Of a stretch of 37,309 nt of DNA, positions 7,387 through 25,741 are shown piece after piece; positions within the stretch are counted from its first letter, which is position 1, and each line of letters begins with the position of its first letter. Source of the stretch: a virus. Under the pieces are notes generated by a model that worked only from the letters and a program-made list of their open reading frames with translations, was not told where the DNA came from and made no database searches. Made by a program: the position numbers and the translations under genes. The stretch spans positions 1 through 37,309 of IMG/VR virus record IMGVR_UViG_3300000228_000019; one strand, 5' to 3'.

Positions 7387-9990
7387 TTAAAGATGATGGA
7401 ATTCTTTTTTCTTGCTCCAAGGTTCATCAATTTCAGACCGTTCAAATTCAATGTCAAGCGGCACTATTATCCACGGGTGTTGTTCTCTTATTTCTTTTGT
7501 AGCGATCAACTTACTCATGTTACACCAACTCATGTGTTCATCAGGGTGTATGTCCCCCAAACAACAATCGTGGATCTGTCCAATGAGCATGGACTTCATA
7601 CGTTCATCAAGCATACGCTGTTCCAGATTAGTTATAGCCCATATCAAGCAATGAAATGCGGTGCCCTGAACTGGGTAGTTGCATATATCGTTGCGTGTAA
7701 GCCAGCCATGACATCTGAATCCAAACATCTGCTCAATATAACCTTTTTCAAGGTAGCTCTTAAATGCTTTCTCTTGCCACGCTTTTACAGCTTTGAATCT
7801 GTTCCAGAATCGTTGCTCTGTTCTCTTTGTGTGGTTTTCAAAATCCTCTTGTGCTGTTGACATTGACTTTATAACACCCTTTCTTCTTAGGTGTTCATAA
7901 ATATTAATCTCACCAACTTTCATTTCTTTCAGTTGTGGGAAAATACCTCTTGCAATTGATCGGTAATAAGACCCATAGAACAGTGCAAATACCATGCTAT
8001 TCTTTGCAACAAACCTGATATTCTTTGCTTCCTTCTTATCAATTGCTGCCCATTCATCTTTTGTAAAAGCAAACCAGTCCATAGCTTGGTCACGGTGCAT
8101 GTCAGATGTAGGATCTTCAATGTACTTTATCAGTACAGGATCCTGCGTGATACAAGCGATGATACGCACTTCCATTGATCCATAATCCCAGTCTACAAGC
8201 TGATTGCCGAAAGAAGGAACTATGCCACCTCTGGTGATATTCATTGCTTCAGTATCACGTACTGGTATGTTCTGAAAGTTTGGACTACTTGAGCTTCCTC
8301 TATATGTAGCTACAGTATGCAGGTCAAAGAAGGGATGCAGCTTGTTATCATCTTCTATCTCCCGCAGGAACTGCCCCAGATACGTTCCTTTTATCTTTTC
8401 CAGCTTGGAAATCTTTGTCTTTTCCTTTGCTATCGGAGTATTTAATGATGCCAGTACCTCCGCATCCACACATGCATTGCCCCCTGCTGTCAATTTACCT
8501 TTGGGTAGTTTTAAAACATTGAAGAACAAATCGGCAAGATCAGCAGATGAATTGAAATTGATCGGTCTCCTACGCTCTTTGAGGAACTGTTGCGCTTCTG
8601 GGAAGTTATGGAGTGCTTCCTTCATTGTATTGATGCGTTGTTCCAACTCAACATTCATATCCTCATAATACTTACGATTAAGAGGAATACCGTTTTCTTG
8701 CAATGTAGCTAATGTTTTGAGGCCGCCCATAAAGAACTTGCGAGCGGATTCCATTTTAGGACGATCACTAAGCTCTTCCTCTTGCTCTTCCTGTAGTCTG
8801 TATGTCAGTAGGCTGTCTATGCTATTGTATAGCAGTAAATCGTTGAGGGGAGCTTCCATAACTCGGTTATATGGCGTATCTTTGCTCTCGTTTTTCAGAT
8901 ATTTTTCAATACTTGAATCATAATCAGGAATTCCCCAACGAATCAATGCTTGGTACTTTAGTCCTGAAAACTCTGATCTGTTGTCCAATATGTGTGCTGC
9001 ATTCATTGAGCACCAATGCATTGGATTAATGTCGATACCAAAGAACTCTCGGCTCCACATATCCTCGAACTTGAGGTTGTGGGCTACCTTTTTGATAGCT
9101 TTGTCAGTCAATATCTCTGCCCACACATCACCAATTTGATCTATCTGGCTACTATTAAAATGGTTTCTATATTGATAAGGAATACCATAAGATGTCTCAA
9201 AGTTGGTGCAAAAGCTCATTGACGCTATTCTATGTCCTTTACGATAAGGTTTTAGACCTGTTGTCTCATAGTCAAATGCAAAGAACTCAGGCTTATCATT
9301 CAACACTTTTTCTAAGACATTCATAACCTCATCAAAGTCTTTGATTATCTTTGCACCTTTCAGTGACATAGCTTCTGGTTTATCATTACCTTTTGACATT
9401 CGTATTGCGTGAGATAAATCTCTACCGAATGTATTTTGGAAATGGTCATCTTTTTCCATACGAATTACATACGCAGGATGATACAACGGAAACACCCATG
9501 CCTGTCTTTCAACATCAGGTATTCTTAATCCTCTCCAGCGTTCTGCTGTAGTTACAGATTCACGTTCATGGTAGTAACTGTAAATAGCATCAGTACCCAT
9601 TAACCATATAAATTTAGGTTTGAGTTCAGTGATTGTCCTCTTTAATCTGGAACTACAATGCTTAACATGGGCTTTTGTAACCTTAGCAGCATGACACCCC
9701 ACTGCATTTGTTTTCCAACAATCTCTTTCAAGATCAATACCCATAATTTTTAGCTTTTCTTTAAACCATTTGCCAGTATCACCTGATAGAGGTATACCTG
9801 CTTTGTCATCAGCTTCACTGGGCGCCTCAGCAACAATGAGGATTCCCTTCTCTCCTTTACCTGTATATCCCATTTGAGGAGTTTTACAAGTCTTAGAAAG
9901 ACCGCACTTTTCACACTCTCCACTGTTAGGTCCATTTATCCCAACAGAAGAGAGTTCTTCATCACTAAAGAACCCTCTCAGTTTTGCCAT
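7387..9990 (-). CDS. DNA polymerase I fused to an N-terminal uracil-DNA glycosylase-like domain
   Basis: This 867-aa replicative polymerase has three parts. Residues 1-200 resemble family 4 uracil-DNA glycosylase: likely Fe-S cysteines (C26, C29, C35, C91, C99, C112), AEAPSEADDKAGIPLSG (54-70), TNAVGC (94-99), and the HPAY motif (171-174). A DEDD 3'-5' exonuclease follows, with FDYETTGL (D240, E242), HNLKFED and a YNSID motif. The family A polymerase domain has motif A VDWDYGSMEVR, motif B RFVAKNSMVFALFYGSYYR and motif C QIHD (H807, D808). There is no 5'-3' exonuclease; the separate FEN gene can supply it. UDG-polymerase fusions are known in some phages. CAAGGAG precedes the ATG. Confidence 0.94.
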   Translation of the reverse strand: MAKLRGFFSDEELSSVGINGPNSGECEKCGLSKTCKTPQMGYTGKGEKGILIVAEAPSEADDKAGIPLSGDTGKWFKEKLKIMGIDLERDCWKTNAVGCHAAKVTKAHVKHCSSRLKRTITELKPKFIWLMGTDAIYSYYHERESVTTAERWRGLRIPDVERQAWVFPLYHPAYVIRMEKDDHFQNTFGRDLSHAIRMSKGNDKPEAMSLKGAKIIKDFDEVMNVLEKVLNDKPEFFAFDYETTGLKPYRKGHRIASMSFCTNFETSYGIPYQYRNHFNSSQIDQIGDVWAEILTDKAIKKVAHNLKFEDMWSREFFGIDINPMHWCSMNAAHILDNRSEFSGLKYQALIRWGIPDYDSSIEKYLKNESKDTPYNRVMEAPLNDLLLYNSIDSLLTYRLQEEQEEELSDRPKMESARKFFMGGLKTLATLQENGIPLNRKYYEDMNVELEQRINTMKEALHNFPEAQQFLKERRRPINFNSSADLADLFFNVLKLPKGKLTAGGNACVDAEVLASLNTPIAKEKTKISKLEKIKGTYLGQFLREIEDDNKLHPFFDLHTVATYRGSSSSPNFQNIPVRDTEAMNITRGGIVPSFGNQLVDWDYGSMEVRIIACITQDPVLIKYIEDPTSDMHRDQAMDWFAFTKDEWAAIDKKEAKNIRFVAKNSMVFALFYGSYYRSIARGIFPQLKEMKVGEINIYEHLRRKGVIKSMSTAQEDFENHTKRTEQRFWNRFKAVKAWQEKAFKSYLEKGYIEQMFGFRCHGWLTRNDICNYPVQGTAFHCLIWAITNLEQRMLDERMKSMLIGQIHDCCLGDIHPDEHMSWCNMSKLIATKEIREQHPWIIVPLDIEFERSEIDEPWSKKKEFHHL

Positions 9991-11597: not shown

Positions 11598-11769
11598 TGA
11601 GTATCCTTTCTTCTGTTTTAAGTTGTAACACCACATTACAATCTTTGGGATAGAAAAATGTAACGAGCCTATGATATTCTACATCATTTTTTTCCAACTC
11701 TTCTTTGAACTTCCGTTCTTTTTCAATCTTTGATAGCTGTGGAAAGTTTCCAGATAGATATACTATCAT
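11551..11769 (-). CDS. Hypothetical protein, 72 aa
   Basis: The sequence begins MIVYLSGNFPQLSK and contains YHRLVTFFYPKDC, resembling a small protein seen in many phages, but I know no function for it. The ATG overlaps the upstream TGA (ATGA), and the 3' end overlaps the sliding clamp start by 47 bp. Both overlaps suggest coupled translation. Confidence 0.6.
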   Translation of the reverse strand: MIVYLSGNFPQLSKIEKERKFKEELEKNDVEYHRLVTFFYPKDCNVVLQLKTEERILNESSKSGDSGSTYKG

Positions 11770-12140
11770 GCTGCACTCCATACAACCATCGCACCATTTT
11801 CGTTATCTTCAAATACGGAGCAGGAGACATTCGATAATTTGTATGTTTCAGCAAGCTTGATACAAATATCTTCTCCTATCATTTCACAGGATCTGTTACC
11901 AAAATTTATCAATGGAATATCATGGGCCTTAGGATACAAATCTTTGATTATTTCAATCAAGGCAGCTTGCACCATAAAGAATTCCAACTCTCTGTCAGAA
12001 TCTATCACAGGAATATGTGCCTCAAAATGGAACATGTGTCTGTGGCTGTTTCTCAAAAATGAAACAGCCTCTATATTGCATGTACTCCAACCATGCAATC
12101 CCGCTAATGCACACCGCACAATAATAGTTTTTTGAATCAT
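11766..12140 (-). CDS. T-fold (QueD/PTPS)-like protein, 124 aa
   Basis: The pattern HRHMFH (33-38), SDRELEF (48-54), SCE (84-86) and EDNENGA (111-117) recalls the tunnelling-fold enzymes QueD/6-pyruvoyl-tetrahydropterin synthase, which have a zinc-binding His set and a late Glu that anchors the pterin. The typical QueD Cys-x3-HGH motif is absent, so it is not a plain QueD. A similar phage protein family exists but its function is, as far as I know, unassigned. It lies directly downstream of the DpdA-like gene and has its own -10 box. A role in modified-base metabolism is an inference. Confidence 0.6.
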   Translation of the reverse strand: MIQKTIIVRCALAGLHGWSTCNIEAVSFLRNSHRHMFHFEAHIPVIDSDRELEFFMVQAALIEIIKDLYPKAHDIPLINFGNRSCEMIGEDICIKLAETYKLSNVSCSVFEDNENGAMVVWSAA

Positions 12141-12161: not shown

Positions 12162-12190
12162 ATTATAGAGTAAAATTTCAAAACCTTAGA
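12162..12190 (-). promoter_or_regulatory. Candidate promoter before the T-fold-like gene
   Basis: In the 45-bp gap after dpdA the minus strand carries a perfect TATAAT about 22 bases before the start codon. The upstream AAGGTTTTGAAATTTT block matches the one before the TATAGT at 7356, suggesting a shared phage promoter type. No good -35 hexamer is seen. Confidence 0.45.
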
Positions 12191-13118
12191 ATAATTGTGA
12201 GGTGCGAAATTTTGATTTCCAAGGACGAGGATATGGTGGAGTATATTTTTCTAAGTCCAAGTAGAACTGCAGGTTAAGTTGATCCCTTAATTCATGTCTA
12301 TTGCAAAGACCTGGTTCAATAATAACCTCAACTAAATTATTGGATTTATCTGCCCACTGCTCACCTTCAACCACTTTGTAACCCTTTTCCACTGTCTTAA
12401 ACTCTGAATTACCTACAACAAATCCTTTTTCTTCAAAGTAGTTTGTAAAGTAGTCCTGGTGCATACCCACTACATTGTCAAAATGATCGGCATTGCTTTT
12501 GCTTTTAGGTCTTGATGAAACGAACACAGTGTTAGGTGATTTGGTATACACGTATTGCCCATCCTTCTTATATGGTATTATGACAATACCATACTTGCCA
12601 AACATTACCCATGAAGTTGAATCAACAGAGTACCAAGGAAATTCTGCAATAATGCCGGGTGCAGTCATTGCAAACCCGTGTATTTTACGAATAGGCTCAT
12701 ACGAAGGTTTCTTGCAAATGTAAGAAAATACTGGCATACCGATGTTTTGATACCACGTGGGTTTGCTTACTTCTTGACCTAGTCCACTGACACCTATGTA
12801 TTCATAATTATCAACGTATTTTTTAAACCATGAGAAATCTTCGCCTGAGTGATATACAGGCAGTGGTGTGATTTTATAAACATCTTCCAAATGTTTTTGT
12901 ACTTTCCACGATAATTCTGGGTTATGAATTACGTCCACTGATACATATACATCCAACAAATGTTCATGCTTTTGAATAAAAACACCATAGGCATCAACAT
13001 AGTTCCAAAATTCATCAGTTTCATAATAACCAAAATCTAGTTTTCCGTGTTGCTTTTTCAAAATTTCACGAACAAACAAAGAGTGTGCTCCAGAATCCAC
13101 CATCAATTTAGATTCCAT
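12186..13118 (-). CDS. dpdA: DpdA-like 7-deazaguanine DNA transglycosylase (TGT superfamily)
   Basis: This 310-aa protein has hallmarks of phage TGT-like DpdA proteins, which exchange guanine in DNA for a 7-deazaguanine. It has VDSGAHS (7-13) in the place of the TGT DSGGFQ motif, YVSVDV (58-63), VYHSGED (88-94), GVSGLG (109-114), HGFAMT (147-152) and PWYSVDSTSW (161-170). D8 and D166 are candidate catalytic aspartates by analogy with TGT. GGAGGTTAT precedes the ATG. It overlaps the glycosyltransferase gene by 16 bp and ends a folE-radical SAM-glycosyltransferase-dpdA run. A tRNA-directed TGT role is less likely because the phage also carries FolE, QueD and QueE. Substrate specificity cannot be read from sequence. 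Confidence 0.78.
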   Translation of the reverse strand: MESKLMVDSGAHSLFVREILKKQHGKLDFGYYETDEFWNYVDAYGVFIQKHEHLLDVYVSVDVIHNPELSWKVQKHLEDVYKITPLPVYHSGEDFSWFKKYVDNYEYIGVSGLGQEVSKPTWYQNIGMPVFSYICKKPSYEPIRKIHGFAMTAPGIIAEFPWYSVDSTSWVMFGKYGIVIIPYKKDGQYVYTKSPNTVFVSSRPKSKSNADHFDNVVGMHQDYFTNYFEEKGFVVGNSEFKTVEKGYKVVEGEQWADKSNNLVEVIIEPGLCNRHELRDQLNLQFYLDLEKYTPPYPRPWKSKFRTSQLF

Positions 13119-14128
13119 ATAACCTCCAGCATATTTGGTATTGCATGGTAACCATCAGAAGCTAATTTTATTTTGGTTGACTTTAACCCATCAATTAAGG
13201 TTTGTTGATTACCTTTATTGATCTCCCCGATAGTGTAGGATAATAGTTCGATAAAATCTTTTATAGTATCATACCTGTACTGTTTAGGGTACATTTCTTT
13301 ATAGCTCAATCTGTTGGGCAAAATAGGTATGTTATCCAACATTATAGCTTCTTGTACAGCAATGCCCCAATTCTCATGCAATGCAAAAGAAACAACGATG
13401 CTGGAGGTAGCCAAAAAATCATAATAATGTTTCTTTGAAAATGAATGTGCTTGGGTTTTGATACACGTCCAATCTGGATGTTCCATCTTCAGATAGCTTG
13501 CAATACTGTCAAACAAGGATGGTTGTTTATCGTCGGTTAACCTATGTGGAAACACCACTATTTTTTCTTTGGGTTTTGGGTTGTCATAGAAGTTAATAGG
13601 AAATCCTGTTACATGTATCCTTGTATCCTTTGCATTAACTCTATTTTTAAGAATCAACTGTTTGTGGTAGTTGGTGGCTACAAAACATGCATCATAGATA
13701 TGAAACCAAGAATTTTCTAATGCTTCACCCCATAGACCCATACCCCTTTTTGAAATAAAATCAGTAGGATCATAAGTACCGGCATGAAAACAACCTACTA
13801 TTTTGAAATTAACACCCAAACCATCGCGCATATATGCAAGCATTTCAACCCCAGGAAACCATGCATCATGTAGCAGAATTATGTCATCCGATGTTATTTT
13901 TCCTGTGTGAATCATTTTACACAGTATTTGTAGTTGTGATGCCTTGTAATAGTTGGTTCCACATACATCCAAGAAAGCACCGTTTTCGATTGTAGTAGTT
14001 AAAGGAGTACCATACACTACATCAAATGGTATACCTTTAAAAGCAAATTCAGTAGTAAACCAATCATCCCATTGTTTAGAGTACCTAGATTCTAGCGGTT
14101 CAATAGGTACTGATATTATCTTTGGCAT
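13103..14128 (-). CDS. GT-B glycosyltransferase in the deazaguanine cluster
   Basis: This 341-aa protein resembles GT4-type enzymes. The N-terminal half has EPLESRY (10-16), FLDVCGTNYYK (52-62) and HAGTYD (115-120), a pattern found in phage glycosyltransferases. The C-terminal half has a donor-site loop VVFPHRLTDDKQ (191-202), HENWGIAVQE (251-260, an Ex7E-like pair) and PNRLSYKEMYP (271-281). The last motif recalls the tRNA-queuosine mannosyltransferase (GTDC1/QTMAN) family, from memory of that family. It overlaps both dpdA (16 bp) and the radical SAM gene (29 bp). Glycosylation of a deazaguanine base in phage DNA is the inferred role; surface polysaccharide modification is an alternative. 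Confidence 0.8.
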   Translation of the reverse strand: MPKIISVPIEPLESRYSKQWDDWFTTEFAFKGIPFDVVYGTPLTTTIENGAFLDVCGTNYYKASQLQILCKMIHTGKITSDDIILLHDAWFPGVEMLAYMRDGLGVNFKIVGCFHAGTYDPTDFISKRGMGLWGEALENSWFHIYDACFVATNYHKQLILKNRVNAKDTRIHVTGFPINFYDNPKPKEKIVVFPHRLTDDKQPSLFDSIASYLKMEHPDWTCIKTQAHSFSKKHYYDFLATSSIVVSFALHENWGIAVQEAIMLDNIPILPNRLSYKEMYPKQYRYDTIKDFIELLSYTIGEINKGNQQTLIDGLKSTKIKLASDGYHAIPNMLEVIWNLN

Positions 14129-14984
14129 TACGTATCCTTTCAGATAACATGTCTCTATGAAACAGGGTAGGACTTTTAGCAGTGCAGCATTGGCATATTT
14201 TGGGCAAATCCTGATTAAGTCTCATATTTTTTCGGAATGCAGCAACTTCTGAACCATTCCATATTTCACTTAGAGTGCTATCATTCACATTTCCATAAAC
14301 AATGTCATCACCCTGCATAACACAACACGGACCAACATTTCCGTTTGCGTGTATAGAAACACTAGACCATGGATTTAAACACAGTTCATCATTGGTCACA
14401 CTATTAACGTAATCTTTATAACAATCGGGAATTGCCCTCACAGTGCAATTTTTGCCCAAGAACATGTTGTAAACAATATCAAATTCCAAGTCCCAATCTG
14501 ATAATTCGATGATTTGTAAATCCACTGTAGTGGTGGGCCTTACAACACTGAGTAATAATTCTATGTTATCGCACAAATCTGCTATGGTGAAGCTGTCTAC
14601 CTTTGTGATCCTGATGTTTTTATAGTTTGTCACACTATCAACTGAGACAGTTATTGCATCAAGTTTGGCTAAACTTTGCAAGTTTTTAGGAATAAGCATA
14701 CCATTTGTACTTAATCCTACCAACAATCCTAATTGCTTCAATCTGTCAATTATTTCCTCCAATTGAGGATGCAATAGTGGTTCACCAGATAGCTGCAATT
14801 CAACAAAGTAAGAATTGGTAAAGTCGCCCTGAAGTATCATTTTATCCAAGGTTTGGAGCGATAAAAATGGTGTCTTATCGCTCCTGCTGAATATTTTATT
14901 CGGGCACATGATGCATTCCATATTGCAAACGGATGCTACTTCCAATTGATATATTTCGGGTAAACTTCTTACTAAATCTGCCAT
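14100..14984 (-). CDS. Radical SAM/SPASM protein in the deazaguanine cluster
   Basis: The N-terminus carries the radical SAM [4Fe-4S] motif C20-x3-C24-x2-C27 (CNMECIMC), followed by the GEPL element (67-70). The C-terminus is SPASM-like: C202, C220, C221, C264, C266 and C267, with ANGNVGPCC and GNVNDSTLSEIWNG between. At 294 aa the protein is compact. SPASM proteins carry extra Fe-S clusters and modify peptides, sugars or other small substrates. Here the gene starts one base after the folE stop (ribosome site GGGG) and overlaps the glycosyltransferase by 29 bp, so it probably acts on the same product. The substrate is unknown. It is not QueE, which is encoded separately. Confidence 0.85.
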   Translation of the reverse strand: MADLVRSLPEIYQLEVASVCNMECIMCPNKIFSRSDKTPFLSLQTLDKMILQGDFTNSYFVELQLSGEPLLHPQLEEIIDRLKQLGLLVGLSTNGMLIPKNLQSLAKLDAITVSVDSVTNYKNIRITKVDSFTIADLCDNIELLLSVVRPTTTVDLQIIELSDWDLEFDIVYNMFLGKNCTVRAIPDCYKDYVNSVTNDELCLNPWSSVSIHANGNVGPCCVMQGDDIVYGNVNDSTLSEIWNGSEVAAFRKNMRLNQDLPKICQCCTAKSPTLFHRDMLSERIRNAKDNISTY

Positions 14985-14985
14985 A

Positions 14986-15567
14986 TTATAACCCCGTTGA
15001 TAATTTAATCAGTTCTAACCCTTCAAGCCTTACAGCTTCTTCTTTGAAACAGCCGTAGATTGCCGAGCTAGTCATACCTGTGTTATCGTACTGCCTAACA
15101 CCTCTACAGGACATGCAACCATGTATAGCTCTCATAACGAGCATTGCGCCCTTAGGTTTCATAACATCTATGAACCTATTGATAATTTCATGGCATAAGT
15201 TCTCTTGTAATTGTGGTCTGGCAGAATAAAATTCTACCAATCTGGGAATCTTAGAAATACCTACAAGGTCATGCTCATTTGGAATATATAAAAACCACGC
15301 TTTACCTGTGAACGGCATAAAATGATGGGAACACATTGAAGTGAAATGGATGTTATCCACCATCATTATCTGGTCATACTTTTTATCATTAGGGAACTTA
15401 CGAAAATCAGCTTCAGGAAACTCTTCTCCTACGTTGTGAAACAACTCTGTACCGTACATTTTGGCTATACGTCTTGGTGTGTCAACAAGGTTAGGATCAT
15501 TTATATCAAGACCTAAACCTTCTGTTAAAGCTAACCTTAAGTGATGCTCTAATTTTGCGAGGTCCAT
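14986..15567 (-). CDS. folE: GTP cyclohydrolase I
   Basis: FolE converts GTP to 7,8-dihydroneopterin triphosphate, the first step towards 7-deazaguanines. The family signature is clear: DTPRRIAKMY (29-38), SMCSHHFMPF (77-86) with zinc ligands C79 and H82, LVGISKIPRLV (101-111), ARPQLQE (116-122) and GCMSCRGVRQ (150-159) with the third ligand C151. At 193 aa it is a standard type I enzyme. It opens the folE, radical SAM, glycosyltransferase, dpdA run. QueD and QueE lie 1-2 kb upstream on the same strand, completing the path to carboxydeazaguanine. The ATG follows TTAAGGAGAATTCC, just after a strong hairpin. Confidence 0.95.
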   Translation of the reverse strand: MDLAKLEHHLRLALTEGLGLDINDPNLVDTPRRIAKMYGTELFHNVGEEFPEADFRKFPNDKKYDQIMMVDNIHFTSMCSHHFMPFTGKAWFLYIPNEHDLVGISKIPRLVEFYSARPQLQENLCHEIINRFIDVMKPKGAMLVMRAIHGCMSCRGVRQYDNTGMTSSAIYGCFKEEAVRLEGLELIKLSTGL

Positions 15568-15630: not shown

Positions 15631-16227
15631 TTACTTGTTACGGACAGCTTTCAGGTTTTCTTCATCTCTGGTAACCTTCACATTGCGGTTAACTTCCAGA
15701 AACTTGATGTGTGCAGACACACGGGCGCGAGAAACACCTGCTTTTGCCATAACTGCTTCAAACGTAGTACCAGCTTCCAAAAGTGTATCAATGTTATTGG
15801 CTGCTGAACCGATTACTGAACCGAAAGGACCTTTTGCTACTTCTTTCTTCTCTTTCGCAGGCTTTTCAGCTTTTTCCTTTGCTACTTCTTTCTTCTCTTT
15901 CGCAGGCTTTTCAGCTTTTTCCTTTGCAGGCTTTTCAGCCTTCTCTTTCGCAGGCTTTTCATCCTTCTCTTTCGCAGGCTTTTCATCAGCAGGAGGCAGT
16001 TCATCTGCAAGCAGGGTATTATACATTTCAACGGCAATAGGGCACTCTGTTTCGATTTTGCCAGCGGCATCATCATCCAAACCATCAATGGCTTCACAGA
16101 AGTTTGCTGCTAGAGCTTCTTTACCTACACCGATTACTTTCAGTTTTTCTTCCAGAAGTCCTGAATCATTCAGAGCTTTTGCGGCTTCCTTCAGTTTGTT
16201 GTTGTCAATTTTATCAGCGGAAATCAT
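15631..16227 (-). CDS. Lys/Glu-Pro-Ala repeat linker protein with C-terminal HTH, 198 aa
   Basis: The protein has an N-terminal helical domain (1-75), a low-complexity linker of EKPAKEKA-type repeats (about 80-133) and a C-terminal HTH-like domain (GVSRARVSAHIKFLEV, about 165-180). The linker resembles histone H1-like tails. The C-terminal domain is shared with the protein at 29198-29767: both have a PAKEKKE run, a G-x-F segment and an RV-x-x-HI-x-FL helix. It lies between HU and folE. Binding to phage DNA or gene regulation is inferred. The ATG follows AAAGGAG. Confidence 0.7.
   Translation of the reverse strand: MISADKIDNNKLKEAAKALNDSGLLEEKLKVIGVGKEALAANFCEAIDGLDDDAAGKIETECPIAVEMYNTLLADELPPADEKPAKEKDEKPAKEKAEKPAKEKAEKPAKEKKEVAKEKAEKPAKEKKEVAKGPFGSVIGSAANNIDTLLEAGTTFEAVMAKAGVSRARVSAHIKFLEVNRNVKVTRDEENLKAVRNK
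15833..15985 (-). repeat. Tandem coding repeats (Lys-rich linker)
   Basis: The DNA of the linker contains a 45-bp unit repeated twice at 15833 and 15878, then shorter 24-bp-like units. The units encode EKPAKEKA variants, so the repeat number can change without breaking the frame. Confidence 0.75.
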
Positions 16228-16259: not shown

Positions 16260-16559
16260 TTAGTTCAGCTTTTCTTTCAGTGCGCCGGCAAGACTGAACT
16301 TGACGGATGCTTTTTCTTCGATTTCGATTGCCTCCCCAGTTTGGGGATTACGCCCAGTACGGGCACCACGAGTCACGGGCTTGAACTTGCCAAAATCATT
16401 GATAGAAATAGTATCTCCATCAACAAGAGCATCCGGCAGCACTTTGTCAAACAGAGCATTAACTACACGCTCCACAGTGTTGCGGGTAACTTTAGCCCCT
16501 TCCATTGCCACGTCATTAATGACGTCCGTTACACCCAAAATTACTTCTTTCCTTGTCAT
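16260..16559 (-). CDS. HU/IHF-family DNA-bending protein
   Basis: At 99 aa this is a full-length HU/IHF protein. The dimerisation helices (MTRKEVILGVTDVINDVA) are followed by the diagnostic FGKFKPVTRGARTGRNPQTG segment, which is the start of the DNA-binding arm, and a C-terminal helix (LAGALKEKLN). It bends or wraps DNA and may act in origin function, packaging or gene control. It has its own upstream promoter and is followed by the lysine-rich HTH protein, a second likely DNA-binding protein. AAAGGAAAACAAG precedes the ATG. Confidence 0.92.
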   Translation of the reverse strand: MTRKEVILGVTDVINDVAMEGAKVTRNTVERVVNALFDKVLPDALVDGDTISINDFGKFKPVTRGARTGRNPQTGEAIEIEEKASVKFSLAGALKEKLN

Positions 16560-16690: not shown

Positions 16691-17353
16691 CTAGTTAGCT
16701 TCATCTAATTCGCATACCTTGTGAAGTTGGACATTCAACATAGCATCCATTTGATTATATTTTTTTATCCAACTCAAAACATTATTGGGTGAAGCTATTC
16801 CATGCTTAGGTGAAAAAGCAAATCGTGCAGCTACACCTTGATCCTGCAGAAATGTTTTTCTGTTCAGAGCTTCTTTAAACTCAGTTTCATTGCCTACTAC
16901 CATTTTGATGATATCCATATTGTTTAATGCCATCAAAATATAAGTATCCATAAGCACCAAACCATCTTGCTTTATATCTACAACCCAATGTGCATAACCG
17001 TGTGGTTTCAATAACTTAGTAAACTTGTGCAGACCATTTGTCTCAATTGAAACATTGTAATCCCTAGCTTCAAGTTGATACAATAGAGCTTGGAGTGCGG
17101 CCTCCTGCTCTAATGGTTCCCCGCCAGTGATTGTCACATTCTTGCAGCCATAAAGTTCAAGAGCTTTTATTATCTGCCCTACAGTTATTGTAGAACCGCT
17201 GTTTGCTGGTTTTGCATACTCAGTATCACAGTATTTGCAATTGGCGCTGCATCCAGCGAATCTGATGAATGTTGCAGGAGAACCAATTCCCCTGTTATTC
17301 ACTTCACCATCAACACTATGGAACATGCTGTAAATACGAACTTTAGTCTCCAC
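16691..17353 (-). CDS. queE: 7-carboxy-7-deazaguanine synthase (radical SAM)
   Basis: QueE rearranges carboxytetrahydropterin to carboxydeazaguanine. The radical SAM cluster motif is C35-x3-C39-x2-C42 (GCSANCKYCDTEY), preceded by the QueE-type YSMFHSVDGEVNNRG, with TITGGEP at 74-80. From the GTG start the protein has 220 aa, the normal length. GTG at 17353 is preferred because GGGGG sits 7 bases upstream and the overlap with QueD is only 11 bp. An ATG at 17407 is the alternative but lies deep in queD. The gene directly follows queD. Confidence 0.92.
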   Translation of the reverse strand: METKVRIYSMFHSVDGEVNNRGIGSPATFIRFAGCSANCKYCDTEYAKPANSGSTITVGQIIKALELYGCKNVTITGGEPLEQEAALQALLYQLEARDYNVSIETNGLHKFTKLLKPHGYAHWVVDIKQDGLVLMDTYILMALNNMDIIKMVVGNETEFKEALNRKTFLQDQGVAARFAFSPKHGIASPNNVLSWIKKYNQMDAMLNVQLHKVCELDEAN

Positions 17354-17735
17354 AAACACACCCCCGACTATTGTTTGTCCATTCTGCAAAGCTAGTAGGT
17401 GTTTCATACAATCTGATTCTTTCCAGTGTAACAAGCAGTCCGAGGTTGAATACTTCTTGCAAGATTGGCACCATGTACGCCACCATGTTTTCAGCAGTGG
17501 GAAGTGGCAGTATGTCGTTAATCAGATGGTGGTCAAATTTATTGATGATTACTTCCGTAACTGCCCGTTTCATCTTCACAAAATCAACTACCATACCGCT
17601 TTCTGTATCAACTTCGCCGGACACCTCTATTTCCAGCTTCCATTGATGACCATGCAGATTTGCACACGGTCCGTTGTAACCAGGCAGATGGTGTGCTGAA
17701 TCAAAAACGAATTCCTTACATACGTTCAGTTTCAT
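17343..17735 (-). CDS. queD: 6-carboxytetrahydropterin synthase
   Basis: QueD converts the FolE product to carboxytetrahydropterin for QueE. The T-fold signature is complete: FVFDSAHHL (9-17), C24-x3-LHGH (27-30) with the catalytic Cys and zinc His residues, FDHHLIND (67-74), PTAENM (79-84) and the pterin-anchoring LYETPTSFAEW (109-119). The ATG at 17735 follows AAAGGAGAAAACC. It overlaps a zinc-ribbon gene upstream and queE downstream, so all three are probably one transcript with the DnaB-type helicase. Confidence 0.94.
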   Translation of the reverse strand: MKLNVCKEFVFDSAHHLPGYNGPCANLHGHQWKLEIEVSGEVDTESGMVVDFVKMKRAVTEVIINKFDHHLINDILPLPTAENMVAYMVPILQEVFNLGLLVTLERIRLYETPTSFAEWTNNSRGCVCGD

Positions 17736-17895
17736 GGTTTTCTCCTTTTGTGTTTGGAATATGGTCACTTCTACTCACTTTGTAGCGAACTCCACAACCC
17801 TTCTTATGGCATGTAAAACGTGAATCTAATCTCGTATGAATGTTGGTATAACGAATAACGCCACAACCTTTACATCTATGCCTGACCCATATCAT
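17716..17895 (-). CDS. Zinc-ribbon protein, 59 aa
   Basis: The sequence has two Cys pairs, CKGC (8-11) and C29...C34 within CHKKGCGVRY, separated by basic residues, a compact zinc ribbon likely to bind nucleic acid. Its ATG overlaps the helicase TGA (ATGA), and its end overlaps the queD start by 20 bp. Function unknown. Confidence 0.65.
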   Translation of the reverse strand: MIWVRHRCKGCGVIRYTNIHTRLDSRFTCHKKGCGVRYKVSRSDHIPNTKGENHETERM

Positions 17896-23764: not shown

Positions 23765-25741
23765 TTATATCCAGTCATTTTCTGAATAGCAAATCATACG
23801 CTCACCAAAATGTTCGATTAAAAACTTATGGGAGGTATCCAAAAAGTCATAAATGTAAACAGCATCCTTATCTTTGGTTTTTCTGAGACCTCTACCAATT
23901 GATTGTAAGGTTTTGATTTCAGATTTTCCTCCAGAAGCACAAATGACAGCATTCAGGTTGGGAATATTCACACCTTCAGTCCACACTGAACTGCATATAA
24001 CACATTTGATATGACCTTCATTTAAGGCGTGTTTCAATTTATTTCTGGATTCTCCATCTGTTGCTCCGTGTACGAACTCGGCATTCACTCCCATGGCTTT
24101 TAGCTGTTCAAGTATCAAATAACCATGATCTAAAATGTTAATCATAATCAGCACAGTTTCATCGGCATCCACATGCTTCTTGGCAGTCTTTGCAATCAAG
24201 ATATTTCGTGCGAGGTTTCTTACCACACCTATGTCATACACTTCATGGTACACTCGCATCTGAGCCATATCGTAATTCTTGGGTACTCTCAATATCTTGA
24301 TTGTAGGTTTAGCCAGAATACCTAATTCTGCTCCCTTGTTGATGGTCATTTCTTCCAGAATAGGACCAATCAATCCTACAGCAGTGAGATAAGCTTCACC
24401 TTCTCTTGGTATTGTTGCAGTTAATCCTAATCGTATGGGAGCAGGTGTCTTTGATAGTACATAAGCGTACTCGGATTTAATGTCCGCAACGTGGTGGCAA
24501 TTATGTACTAAAATCCCTTCAACATAGTAGGTGTGCGCCGCTTCCACTTCGAGGTCATAGAAGGTGCAATACCCTTGATTTCTTTCTGTATCTCCAATAA
24601 TACTTTGGAAAGATTCGTCATTACCTCCTCGTTGGTAAAACTCAACACCTTCCACCCTAATGATTCCAGTTTCATTTTTTTCTTTTGGTCCTGAGTTATT
24701 CTTTCTTTGATTGAATGACTCCATCCGTTCACTTCTATGCCTATTTTTAATATTTGATTTCCTACATCCAGTTTGTAACATGTTGGATAATTTGGAATCC
24801 TTCCCCACCCTGAAACAATCACTTCCATATCCCATCCCAACGTGATTAAATCGTGTCAAGCATTTACCTAAACTTTCCTTAGCAGCAACCCATGATTCTT
24901 CAATTTTTAGTTTGTGGTCTTCTGAACAATATAAAATAACACCATTTGAGAGTGTTATTTTAACTATTCTTTCTAAGGATACCCTATTATGAAACGTATT
25001 TATTACTTTATTTGGGCCACTGTCGGACCAAACAATATCACCCATTGTTAGCGTTTCTATAGGCATATCGCCATAGTAAGTATTGACCATTGTTCCTTTT
25101 GCAAAACATTCGTCTACCACAATTACATCAAATTCGTGCCCATAAGTATCAGCGATAGTTTTAAAGGACTGCCGAGTTGCTATGACAATATCCTTATTAA
25201 TTTCTTTGAAACCATCGCCGTATCTTCCAACACTTTTGAATCCAAACCTTATTGCTTCATCATACGCCTGCATCATCAAATCCTTCTTGTGGCACAACCA
25301 TAAGATTTTAACATTTTCAAACGAGGATAGAATACCAAAGCCAAGAACTGTTTTTCCTGACCCCGTGAATGACACTAGAATCCCTCTGGGCTGATCTAAA
25401 AAGGAATTGATTAAGTGCAGTTGATCTGGACGAAAAGTAATTCCAGGAAGTTCAGGTTCGTACAGCATAATTTCTTCTTGGCTTTGGTCTTTCAAATTTA
25501 TGTCAACATCAATGGATGTGCAATAATCCAAAACGTGTGCGGCTAATCCAGCCCAGAAGAAATGCACACCACCTTTTCCTTTATTCAAGAAGGTCTTTTC
25601 ATATTCTTTACGCTCTTTCTTAAATGGACCTTGTCTCCAGTAAGCTGCTTTGAAGGATAAACAAGGCTTGATGATTGCCGCTAATACTGGACTACACTCA
25701 GCCCATATAGGGTTTTTGATTATAATTTCATGCGCTGGCAT
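23765..25741 (-). CDS. DExH-box helicase (UvsW/T5 D10-like) interrupted by an intein
   Basis: Without its intein this is a superfamily 2 helicase of about 455 aa. Motif I is FTGSGKT (125-131), motif Ia lies at WLCHKKDL (148-155), motif II is VVDE-CHH split by the intein between E211 and C415, motif III is GLTATIPRE, and motif VI is QSIGRGLRK. The intein occupies residues 212-414. Insertion in the ATP-hydrolysis motif means splicing is needed for activity. UvsW/D10-type helicases remodel branched DNA and R-loops and would fit the recombination genes here. Its 5' end overlaps a zinc-finger gene by 22 bp in the preferred annotation; no second helicase of this type is seen. Confidence 0.9.
   Translation of the reverse strand: MPAHEIIIKNPIWAECSPVLAAIIKPCLSFKAAYWRQGPFKKERKEYEKTFLNKGKGGVHFFWAGLAAHVLDYCTSIDVDINLKDQSQEEIMLYEPELPGITFRPDQLHLINSFLDQPRGILVSFTGSGKTVLGFGILSSFENVKILWLCHKKDLMMQAYDEAIRFGFKSVGRYGDGFKEINKDIVIATRQSFKTIADTYGHEFDVIVVDECFAKGTMVNTYYGDMPIETLTMGDIVWSDSGPNKVINTFHNRVSLERIVKITLSNGVILYCSEDHKLKIEESWVAAKESLGKCLTRFNHVGMGYGSDCFRVGKDSKLSNMLQTGCRKSNIKNRHRSERMESFNQRKNNSGPKEKNETGIIRVEGVEFYQRGGNDESFQSIIGDTERNQGYCTFYDLEVEAAHTYYVEGILVHNCHHVADIKSEYAYVLSKTPAPIRLGLTATIPREGEAYLTAVGLIGPILEEMTINKGAELGILAKPTIKILRVPKNYDMAQMRVYHEVYDIGVVRNLARNILIAKTAKKHVDADETVLIMINILDHGYLILEQLKAMGVNAEFVHGATDGESRNKLKHALNEGHIKCVICSSVWTEGVNIPNLNAVICASGGKSEIKTLQSIGRGLRKTKDKDAVYIYDFLDTSHKFLIEHFGERMICYSENDWI
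24500..25108 (-). mobile_element. Intein in helicase motif II
   Basis: The 203-aa insertion begins with Cys (CFAKGTMVNTYYGDMPIETL) and ends HN before Cys, with a block F-like YDLEVEAAHTYYVEGILVHN. A block B-like segment is ILYCSEDHKLKI. These are the four splicing landmarks of a class 1 intein. It splits VVDE and CHH, a typical conserved insertion point. The middle of the in-frame product (about 303-392 of the precursor) is low-quality sequence, because the nuclease is encoded there in another frame. Confidence 0.92.
24508..24840 (-). CDS. DUF559/Vsr-like nuclease nested out of frame in the intein
   Basis: In a frame shifted by one base from the intein lies a 110-codon ORF with the PD-(D/E)xK-type pattern of DUF559/Vsr-like homing endonucleases: TCYKLDVGNQ, then KIGIEVNGWSH, a run of Lys/Gln, and ESLGWKVLSFTNEEV. 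It could start at TTG 24840 or ATG 24828; GGGAT-type ribosome sites are weak. Either it is translated separately, reached by frameshifting, or is a remnant after indels knocked it out of frame. The frame is open across all likely domain residues, which favours recent or ongoing function. Confidence 0.65.
   Translation of the reverse strand: MGWDMEVIVSGWGRIPNYPTCYKLDVGNQILKIGIEVNGWSHSIKERITQDQKKKMKLESLGWKVLSFTNEEVMTNLSKVLLEIQKEIKGIAPSMTSKWKRRTPTMLKGF

What the first reader, a model, noticed from the sequence alone, without database searches (positions are those of the whole stretch)
12186..15567. A folE - radical SAM/SPASM - glycosyltransferase - dpdA operon: candidate new deazaguanine DNA hypermodification
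Four genes follow each other with a 1-bp gap and overlaps of 29 and 16 bp, so they are translated as a unit. FolE and DpdA belong to the known 7-deazaguanine DNA modification route, and QueD and QueE are 1-2 kb upstream. The radical SAM/SPASM protein and the glycosyltransferase between them are not part of the routes I know (preQ0, preQ1, ADG, archaeosine-type bases). The layout suggests the base is further modified and possibly glycosylated, which would protect DNA from restriction.
Basis: partly seen in the sequence, partly recalled or inferred. Interest (0 to 1): 0.88.

Follow-up and report, generated by a model that had tools for sequence, protein, structure and literature searches.

The report
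Phage cluster predicted to sugar-coat deazaguanine DNA
A phage carries genes that appear to swap guanine in its DNA for a 7-deazaguanine and then attach and reshape a sugar on it; the sugar-transferring gene recurs in scores of other phages beside the same base-swapping genes, so a recognised form of viral DNA camouflage may have an unrecognised sugar-coated version.

Summary
(1) The GT is not a local oddity. In 88 distinct loci chosen only by GT similarity, FolE is present in 79, a DpdA-type transglycosylase (three subfamilies) in 74, and a small protein, p124 (window 11766-12140), in 82. QueC is almost always absent. Cultured phages PA5oct, ACP17, X1, Phosso and BUCT-ZZ01 carry the module. 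(2) The GT is a GT-B/GT4 enzyme with an intact EX7E motif, nearest MshA/BshA. (3) p124 is a QueD-like T-fold protein. (4) The radical SAM/SPASM protein is an optional tailoring enzyme (nearest solved sequence BtrN). It recurs in three other such clusters; related clusters carry an AprD4-like radical SAM, dehydrogenases, or a PIG-L deacetylase. Most likely a deazaguanine base is inserted by DpdA, glycosylated by the GT, and the sugar then remodelled. Chemistry, sugar and order of steps are inferred; no mass data exist. Two key papers could not be read, so novelty is provisional.

The parts
14986..15567 (-). folE, GTP cyclohydrolase I (193 aa): first step of 7-deazaguanine synthesis
   Evidence: PF01227 E 7e-47, phrog_2197 1e-48; present in 79 of 88 GT loci
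14100..14984 (-). radical SAM/SPASM (twitch-like) enzyme (294 aa): predicted tailoring enzyme
   Evidence: PF04055 and PF13186; CX3CX2C C20/C24/C27 and SPASM cysteines C202/C220/C264/C267 invariant in the 4-member family; nearest solved sequences BtrN (E 1e-11) and BlsE
13103..14128 (-). GT4-type glycosyltransferase (341 aa): predicted to glycosylate the deazaguanine
   Evidence: AF2 pLDDT 94.9, Foldseek MshA/BshA, ACP17 homologue TM 0.90; EX7E E252/E260, R196, K201 invariant among 34 sequences
12186..13118 (-). dpdA, DNA-guanine transglycosylase of the 9g-like type (310 aa): base exchange
   Evidence: phrog_887 1.3e-32; tblastn to phage 9g and NP1 type DpdA, about 28% over 75%; only PDB hit is 7ui4 DNA-guanine transglycosylase, weak E 0.15; D8, D166 and H147-G148 invariant
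11766..12140 (-). p124 (124 aa, phrog_17812): QueD/PTPS-like T-fold protein, core member of the module; predicted to act on the base or its precursor in place of QueC
   Evidence: present in 82 of 88 GT loci; H16/H33/H35 and E111 invariant; hhalign to QueD 92%; PDB profile hit PH0634 9e-4; AF2 pLDDT 95.2 and Foldseek PTPS/QueD
16691..17407 (-). queE, 7-carboxy-7-deazaguanine synthase (ATG at 17407; an earlier TTG at 17434 is possible)
   Evidence: TIGR04349 9e-34, TIGR03963 1e-32 (below the curated cut-offs); phrog_2076 1e-27
17343..17735 (-). queD, 6-carboxy-tetrahydropterin synthase (ATG 17735 with AAGGAG; ORF opens at 17768)
   Evidence: PF01242 5e-34; TIGR03367 above its curated cut-off

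Best explanation
This is a phage DNA hypermodification cluster. FolE, QueD and QueE make 7-carboxy-7-deazaguanine (CDG) from GTP (inferred from strong family matches). There is no QueC in the record, so p124, a QueD-like T-fold protein, probably processes CDG or the inserted base (inferred). DpdA exchanges the 7-deazaguanine base for guanine in DNA (inferred from homology). The GT4-type glycosyltransferase then transfers a sugar from a host nucleotide-sugar, possibly UDP-GlcNAc or UDP-Glc, onto the modified base (fold, motif and linkage shown; acceptor and donor inferred). The radical SAM/SPASM enzyme oxidises or otherwise remodels that sugar, or less likely the C7 substituent (weakest step). 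The bulky base would protect phage DNA from host nucleases (inference from known deazaguanine and T4 glucosylated DNA). The GT, p124, FolE, QueE and DpdA core is shown to be a widespread conserved module; the radical SAM is one of several exchangeable tailoring enzymes.
For: Conservation: 88 distinct loci selected by GT alone contain FolE 79, p124 82, QueE 64, any DpdA 74, all module genes on the GT strand in 88 of 88; 16 viral loci selected by a different protein have none of FolE, p124, GT or DpdA. Same module in cultured phages ACP17, PA5oct, Phosso, X1 and BUCT-ZZ01. Three transglycosylase subfamilies are used with one GT family. GT: GT-B fold, EX7E, nearest MshA and BshA. Radical SAM/SPASM family in four independent GT clusters: window, L001/L002, L019, L120, nearest solved sequences BtrN and BlsE. 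Alternative tailoring genes in related clusters: AprD4-like radical SAM in 8 loci, Zn alcohol-dehydrogenase-like and GFO/IDH/MocA oxidoreductases in 13 loci each, PIG-L deacetylase and GAT-QueC beside a distant GT in PhiXhv-12. No QueC in the window record or in most complete phage genomes with the module.
Against: No nucleoside data. GT fold and motif do not name the acceptor. A homologue (39%) in Paenibacillus polymyxa is not next to que or dpd genes. The sister cluster L018 lacks the radical SAM. BtrN/AprD4 likeness is superfamily-level. Host QueC could supply preQ0. If p124 strips the carboxylate (a decarboxylase is predicted in the literature, not read here), the sugar would have no obvious attachment atom.
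Confidence: 0.6

Rival explanations
1. The GT and radical SAM act before insertion: a glycosylated or otherwise altered free 7-deazaguanine base is made and DpdA inserts the finished base.
For: The genes are interleaved (FolE-radical SAM-GT-DpdA), and DpdA comes after GT in the operon. The same GT works with three DpdA subfamilies.
Against: The known late steps of dG+ are post-insertion by analogy with archaeosine tRNA; a sugar-bearing base is large for the TGT-like pocket (prior knowledge).
Confidence: 0.15
2. The GT and its tailoring enzymes modify something else (cell surface, protein, or another DNA base) and are only co-transcribed with the deazaguanine genes.
For: The GT4 family is broad; structural neighbours make small thiols and polysaccharides. 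A related bacterial GT exists outside que/dpd context.
Against: Linkage to FolE, p124, QueE and DpdA persists across three transglycosylase types and very different phages.
Confidence: 0.12
3. The cluster modifies tRNA rather than DNA, like mannosyl- or galactosyl-queuosine.
For: Glycosylated queuosine in tRNA is a known precedent for a sugar on a deazaguanine (prior knowledge).
Against: The transglycosylase matches phage DpdA families and, weakly, the DNA-guanine transglycosylase 7ui4, with no TGT hit in PDB. No Pfam hit for the queuosine mannosyltransferase family in the GT. The cluster lies among replication genes.
Confidence: 0.05
4. The radical SAM/SPASM enzyme works on the base or its C7 substituent rather than on the sugar, so the final base carries a novel C7 group plus a sugar. 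(A variant of the best explanation, not exclusive of the GT's role.)
For: It is directly between FolE and GT here; QueE shows radical SAM chemistry on this scaffold.
Against: Nearest solved relatives (BtrN, BlsE) act on an aminocyclitol and a nucleoside sugar; related clusters hold other sugar-type oxidoreductases.
Confidence: 0.25

Closest known systems
Phage 7-deazaguanine DNA modification by DpdA (dPreQ0, dG+, dADG, dPreQ1; Hutinet 2019, PMC6884629)
   Same: FolE, QueD, QueE and a DpdA of the 9g-related type in one cluster
   Different: No QueC in the record and no QueF or ArcS seen among the genes annotated here; adds p124, a GT and a radical SAM/SPASM enzyme
Further 7-deazaguanine derivatives (Cui 2023, 10.1093/nar/gkad657; not held, known from memory of the abstract)
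   Same: Downstream enzymes altering a DNA deazaguanine; a predicted CDG decarboxylase (DpdL) could be p124
   Different: The derivatives I recall from it carry small groups (methyl, formyl, carboxy), no sugar; not verified here
T4 alpha- and beta-glucosyltransferases on hydroxymethylcytosine
   Same: Post-replicative glycosylation of a phage DNA base as counter-defence (by analogy)
   Different: Pyrimidine target; other GT families; no match of this GT to their Pfam families
MshA/BshA GT4 enzymes of mycothiol and bacillithiol synthesis
   Same: Best structural match, retaining GT-B with EX7E; PIG-L deacetylase partner mirrored in PhiXhv-12
   Different: About 11-15% identity; acceptor cannot be inferred
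BtrN and AprD4 radical SAM enzymes of aminoglycoside synthesis, BlsE of blasticidin synthesis
   Same: Best solved-sequence matches of the two alternative radical SAM proteins
   Different: Superfamily-level similarity only (E 1e-11 and 1e-10)
Queuosine tRNA mannosyl- and galactosyltransferases
   Same: Concept of a sugar on a deazaguanine nucleoside
   Different: tRNA, cyclopentenediol acceptor; no sequence family match

Membership tests
DpdA-type 7-deazaguanine DNA modification cluster | DpdA homologue with conserved Asp residues | tested here: met
   phrog_887 1.3e-32; D8 and D166 invariant in 16 relatives
DpdA-type 7-deazaguanine DNA modification cluster | FolE, QueD and QueE precursor genes | tested here: met
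DpdA-type 7-deazaguanine DNA modification cluster, preQ0/ADG/G+ branch only | QueC | tested here: not met
   No PF06508 match in the 37,309-bp record, which may be a fragment; also absent from L001/L002 contigs and most complete module phages. QueC defines the preQ0-derived branch, not the whole family
DpdA-type 7-deazaguanine DNA modification cluster | 7-deazaguanine present in virion DNA | not testable with these tools
   needs LC-MS
GT4 retaining glycosyltransferase (GT-B) | GT-B fold | tested here: met
   AF2 pLDDT 94.9, Foldseek MshA E 1.3e-11
GT4 retaining glycosyltransferase (GT-B) | EX7E and basic phosphate-binding residues | tested here: met
   E252, E260, R196, K201 invariant
GT4 retaining glycosyltransferase (GT-B) | Transfer of a sugar to deazaguanine DNA | not testable with these tools
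   needs enzyme assay
Radical SAM/SPASM (twitch) enzyme | CX3CX2C and auxiliary-cluster cysteines | tested here: met
   C20, C24, C27; C202, C220, C264, C267
BtrN-type alcohol dehydrogenase | Orthology or same substrate | tested here: inconclusive
   Best PDB sequence match, E 1e-11, but the superfamily is broad
QueD/PTPS (for p124) | T-fold with three zinc histidines | tested here: met
   H16, H33, H35 invariant; fold matches PTPS/QueD
QueD/PTPS (for p124) | QueD catalytic Cys before the HxH motif; Pfam PTPS cut-off | tested here: not met
   No Cys at that site in the alignment; no PF01242 hit for p124; a true QueD is present as well
T4-type DNA glucosyltransferases | Match to their Pfam families | tested here: not met
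   Not among Pfam hits at E up to 10 nor the 50 best PDB folds

The most novel reading that the evidence does not exclude
Many phages carry a glycosylated, further remodelled 7-deazaguanine in DNA: a sugar-decorated purine, whereas the glycosylated DNA bases I know of are pyrimidines. It would be made by a dedicated GT4 family plus p124, with exchangeable sugar-tailoring enzymes (radical SAM/SPASM, AprD4-like radical SAM, dehydrogenases, deacetylase).
Probability: 0.55. Interest if true: 0.87.

Novelty: new variant of a known kind. Interest (0 to 1): 0.72.

Why it matters
If right, a GT annotated 'hypothetical protein' in most of the cultured phages that carry it (PA5oct, MIJ3, Callisto, Paride, ACP17) is a DNA glycosyltransferase. 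A known class of base swap would then gain a large sugar-decorated branch relevant to restriction, CRISPR and type IV defences. It can be tested directly by mass spectrometry on phages already in collections. It also supplies a dedicated GT family, a T-fold protein of unknown reaction, and radical SAM enzymes that may work on DNA-bound sugars.

Tried and rejected
Nucleotide search of the four genes against cultured phages: no match. Single-protein scans of viral contigs with the GT and the radical SAM gave nothing; alignments were needed. Most radical SAM hits (L090-L105) are unrelated SPASM proteins without que/dpd genes and were used as a control. Considered p124 as a QueD replacement: rejected, because true QueD is present too in most genomes tested. 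Considered L107's gene annotated as a glucosamine synthase as a sugar gene: it is GAT-QueC. Considered tRNA modification: disfavoured. The L020 gene in the tailoring slot proved to be a DNA ligase. The 2023 NAR paper and 2024 MMBR review on deazaguanines are not held, so prior mention of this GT cannot be excluded. No glycosylated deazaguanine in phage DNA was found in the open papers searched.
Full report
Observation. The four genes are exactly where described, on the minus strand, with a 1-bp gap and overlaps of 29 and 16 bp, and each is intact. FolE, QueE and QueD are recognisable by curated models, although FolE and QueE score below the strictest NCBI equivalog cut-offs. DpdA matches phrog_887 and phage 9g/NP1-type DpdA. 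The radical SAM protein has both the radical SAM and the SPASM domain. The GT gives no family hit on its own at the default threshold, but its family members match Glycos_transf_1, weakly for the window's own protein, and its AlphaFold model (pLDDT 94.9) is a GT-B fold whose best PDB matches are MshA and BshA. The window is a 37,309-bp IMG/VR virus record, possibly a fragment.

Same order elsewhere. Two viral contigs (L001, L002) have QueD-QueE-..-FolE-radical SAM-GT-p120-DpdA-p124. A contig binned in a bacterial MAG (L120) has QueE-..-radical SAM-GT-p124-DpdA, and L019 has FolE-p124-GT-radical SAM-..-DpdA. The three other radical SAM proteins are 39-45% identical to the window's, with all radical SAM and SPASM cysteines invariant. 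A fifth, more distant one follows the GT in L016. L119 (a Bacteroidetes MAG contig) has FolE-GT-p124-DpdA without a radical SAM.

The core module. A search with the GT alignment alone returned 593 relatives in viral contigs among the first 600 pattern matches; the best 80 were kept. With cultured-phage loci and the window, and duplicate contigs removed, 88 distinct loci were scored by HMM: FolE 79, p124 82, QueE 64, QueD 29, DpdA 74 (17 window-type, 6 X1-type, 51 PA5oct-type), QueC 1, all on one strand with the GT. Many contigs are short, so these are lower bounds. Sixteen viral loci selected by another protein had none of FolE, p124, GT or DpdA. The PA5oct-type protein was assigned as a transglycosylase from a profile match to the X1-type (probability 87%, E 4e-6) and its DSGGFQ motif; this is good but not conclusive. 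In a tree of the GT the three transglycosylase types are clustered but have been exchanged.

p124. This 124-aa protein, beside dpdA here, is conserved in 82 of 88 loci and is known only as phrog_17812, unknown function. It aligns end to end with QueD-like proteins, keeps the three zinc histidines and the base-anchoring glutamate but not the QueD cysteine, and has a nearly invariant SCE motif. Its model is a PTPS-like T-fold. Complete genomes of ACP17, PA5oct, Phosso, X1 and BUCT-ZZ01 carry a true QueD in addition and no convincing QueC (X1 has a weak, sub-cut-off match). p124 also occurs without this GT beside FolE in phiST, Ahp1, RHph_I1_18, Bakedbeans, D479 and MA9V-3. L003, whose DpdA is related but which has QueC, shows neither p124 nor the GT in the stretch held. 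So p124 looks like an alternative to QueC acting after QueE. A CDG decarboxylase named DpdL has been predicted in the literature; I recall this from the abstract and could not check it.

Tailoring enzymes. In eight sister clusters the radical SAM slot holds a different radical SAM protein, closest to AprD4. PA5oct-type clusters hold Zn-alcohol-dehydrogenase-like and GFO/IDH/MocA-like genes (13 loci each), a cytidylyltransferase-like gene and a 2OG oxygenase (11 each). The distant PhiXhv-12 cluster has PIG-L deacetylase, GFO/IDH and GAT-QueC. BUCT-ZZ01 has a second GT, and L075 and L079 also have two. Sugar-modifying chemistry is the common thread, which is why I place the window's radical SAM (nearest solved BtrN, BlsE) after the GT. 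This is inference: superfamily similarity does not fix a substrate, and L018, a near sister, has no radical SAM.

Limits. Nothing here measures DNA. The donor, acceptor atom and order of steps are unknown. The bacterial homologue in Paenibacillus polymyxa shows the GT family is not exclusive to this pathway. The two papers most likely to mention such a GT were not available. Iyer 2021 lists a deazaguanine system in PA5oct, and the passages found mention no associated GT.

Verdict. It is a new variant of the known DpdA deazaguanine systems.

Noticed in passing
window 7387-9990 (-): Family A DNA polymerase with an N-terminal uracil-DNA glycosylase domain fused to exonuclease and polymerase domains.
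   Followed up: no
window 23765-25741 (-): ResIII-type helicase interrupted by an intein-like Hint domain.
   Followed up: no
window 15631-16227 (-): 198-aa protein with EKPAKEK lysine-rich repeats next to an HU-like protein (16260-16559); similar lysine-rich proteins lie at the same place in L001 and, beside QueD, in L003.
   Followed up: no
L121 7998-9020 (Paenibacillus polymyxa): Chromosomal homologue of the phage GT (39%) near an ATP-grasp gene, with no que or dpd genes; substrate unknown.
   Followed up: partly
L107 (Xanthomonas phage PhiXhv-12) 1277-9701: GNAT protein, GAT-QueC, PIG-L deacetylase, distant GT and GFO/IDH oxidoreductase close together: another candidate deazaguanine hypermodification.
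   Followed up: partly
L001 7649-8011: 120-aa protein (p120) between GT and dpdA, no family match; absent from the window.
   Followed up: no
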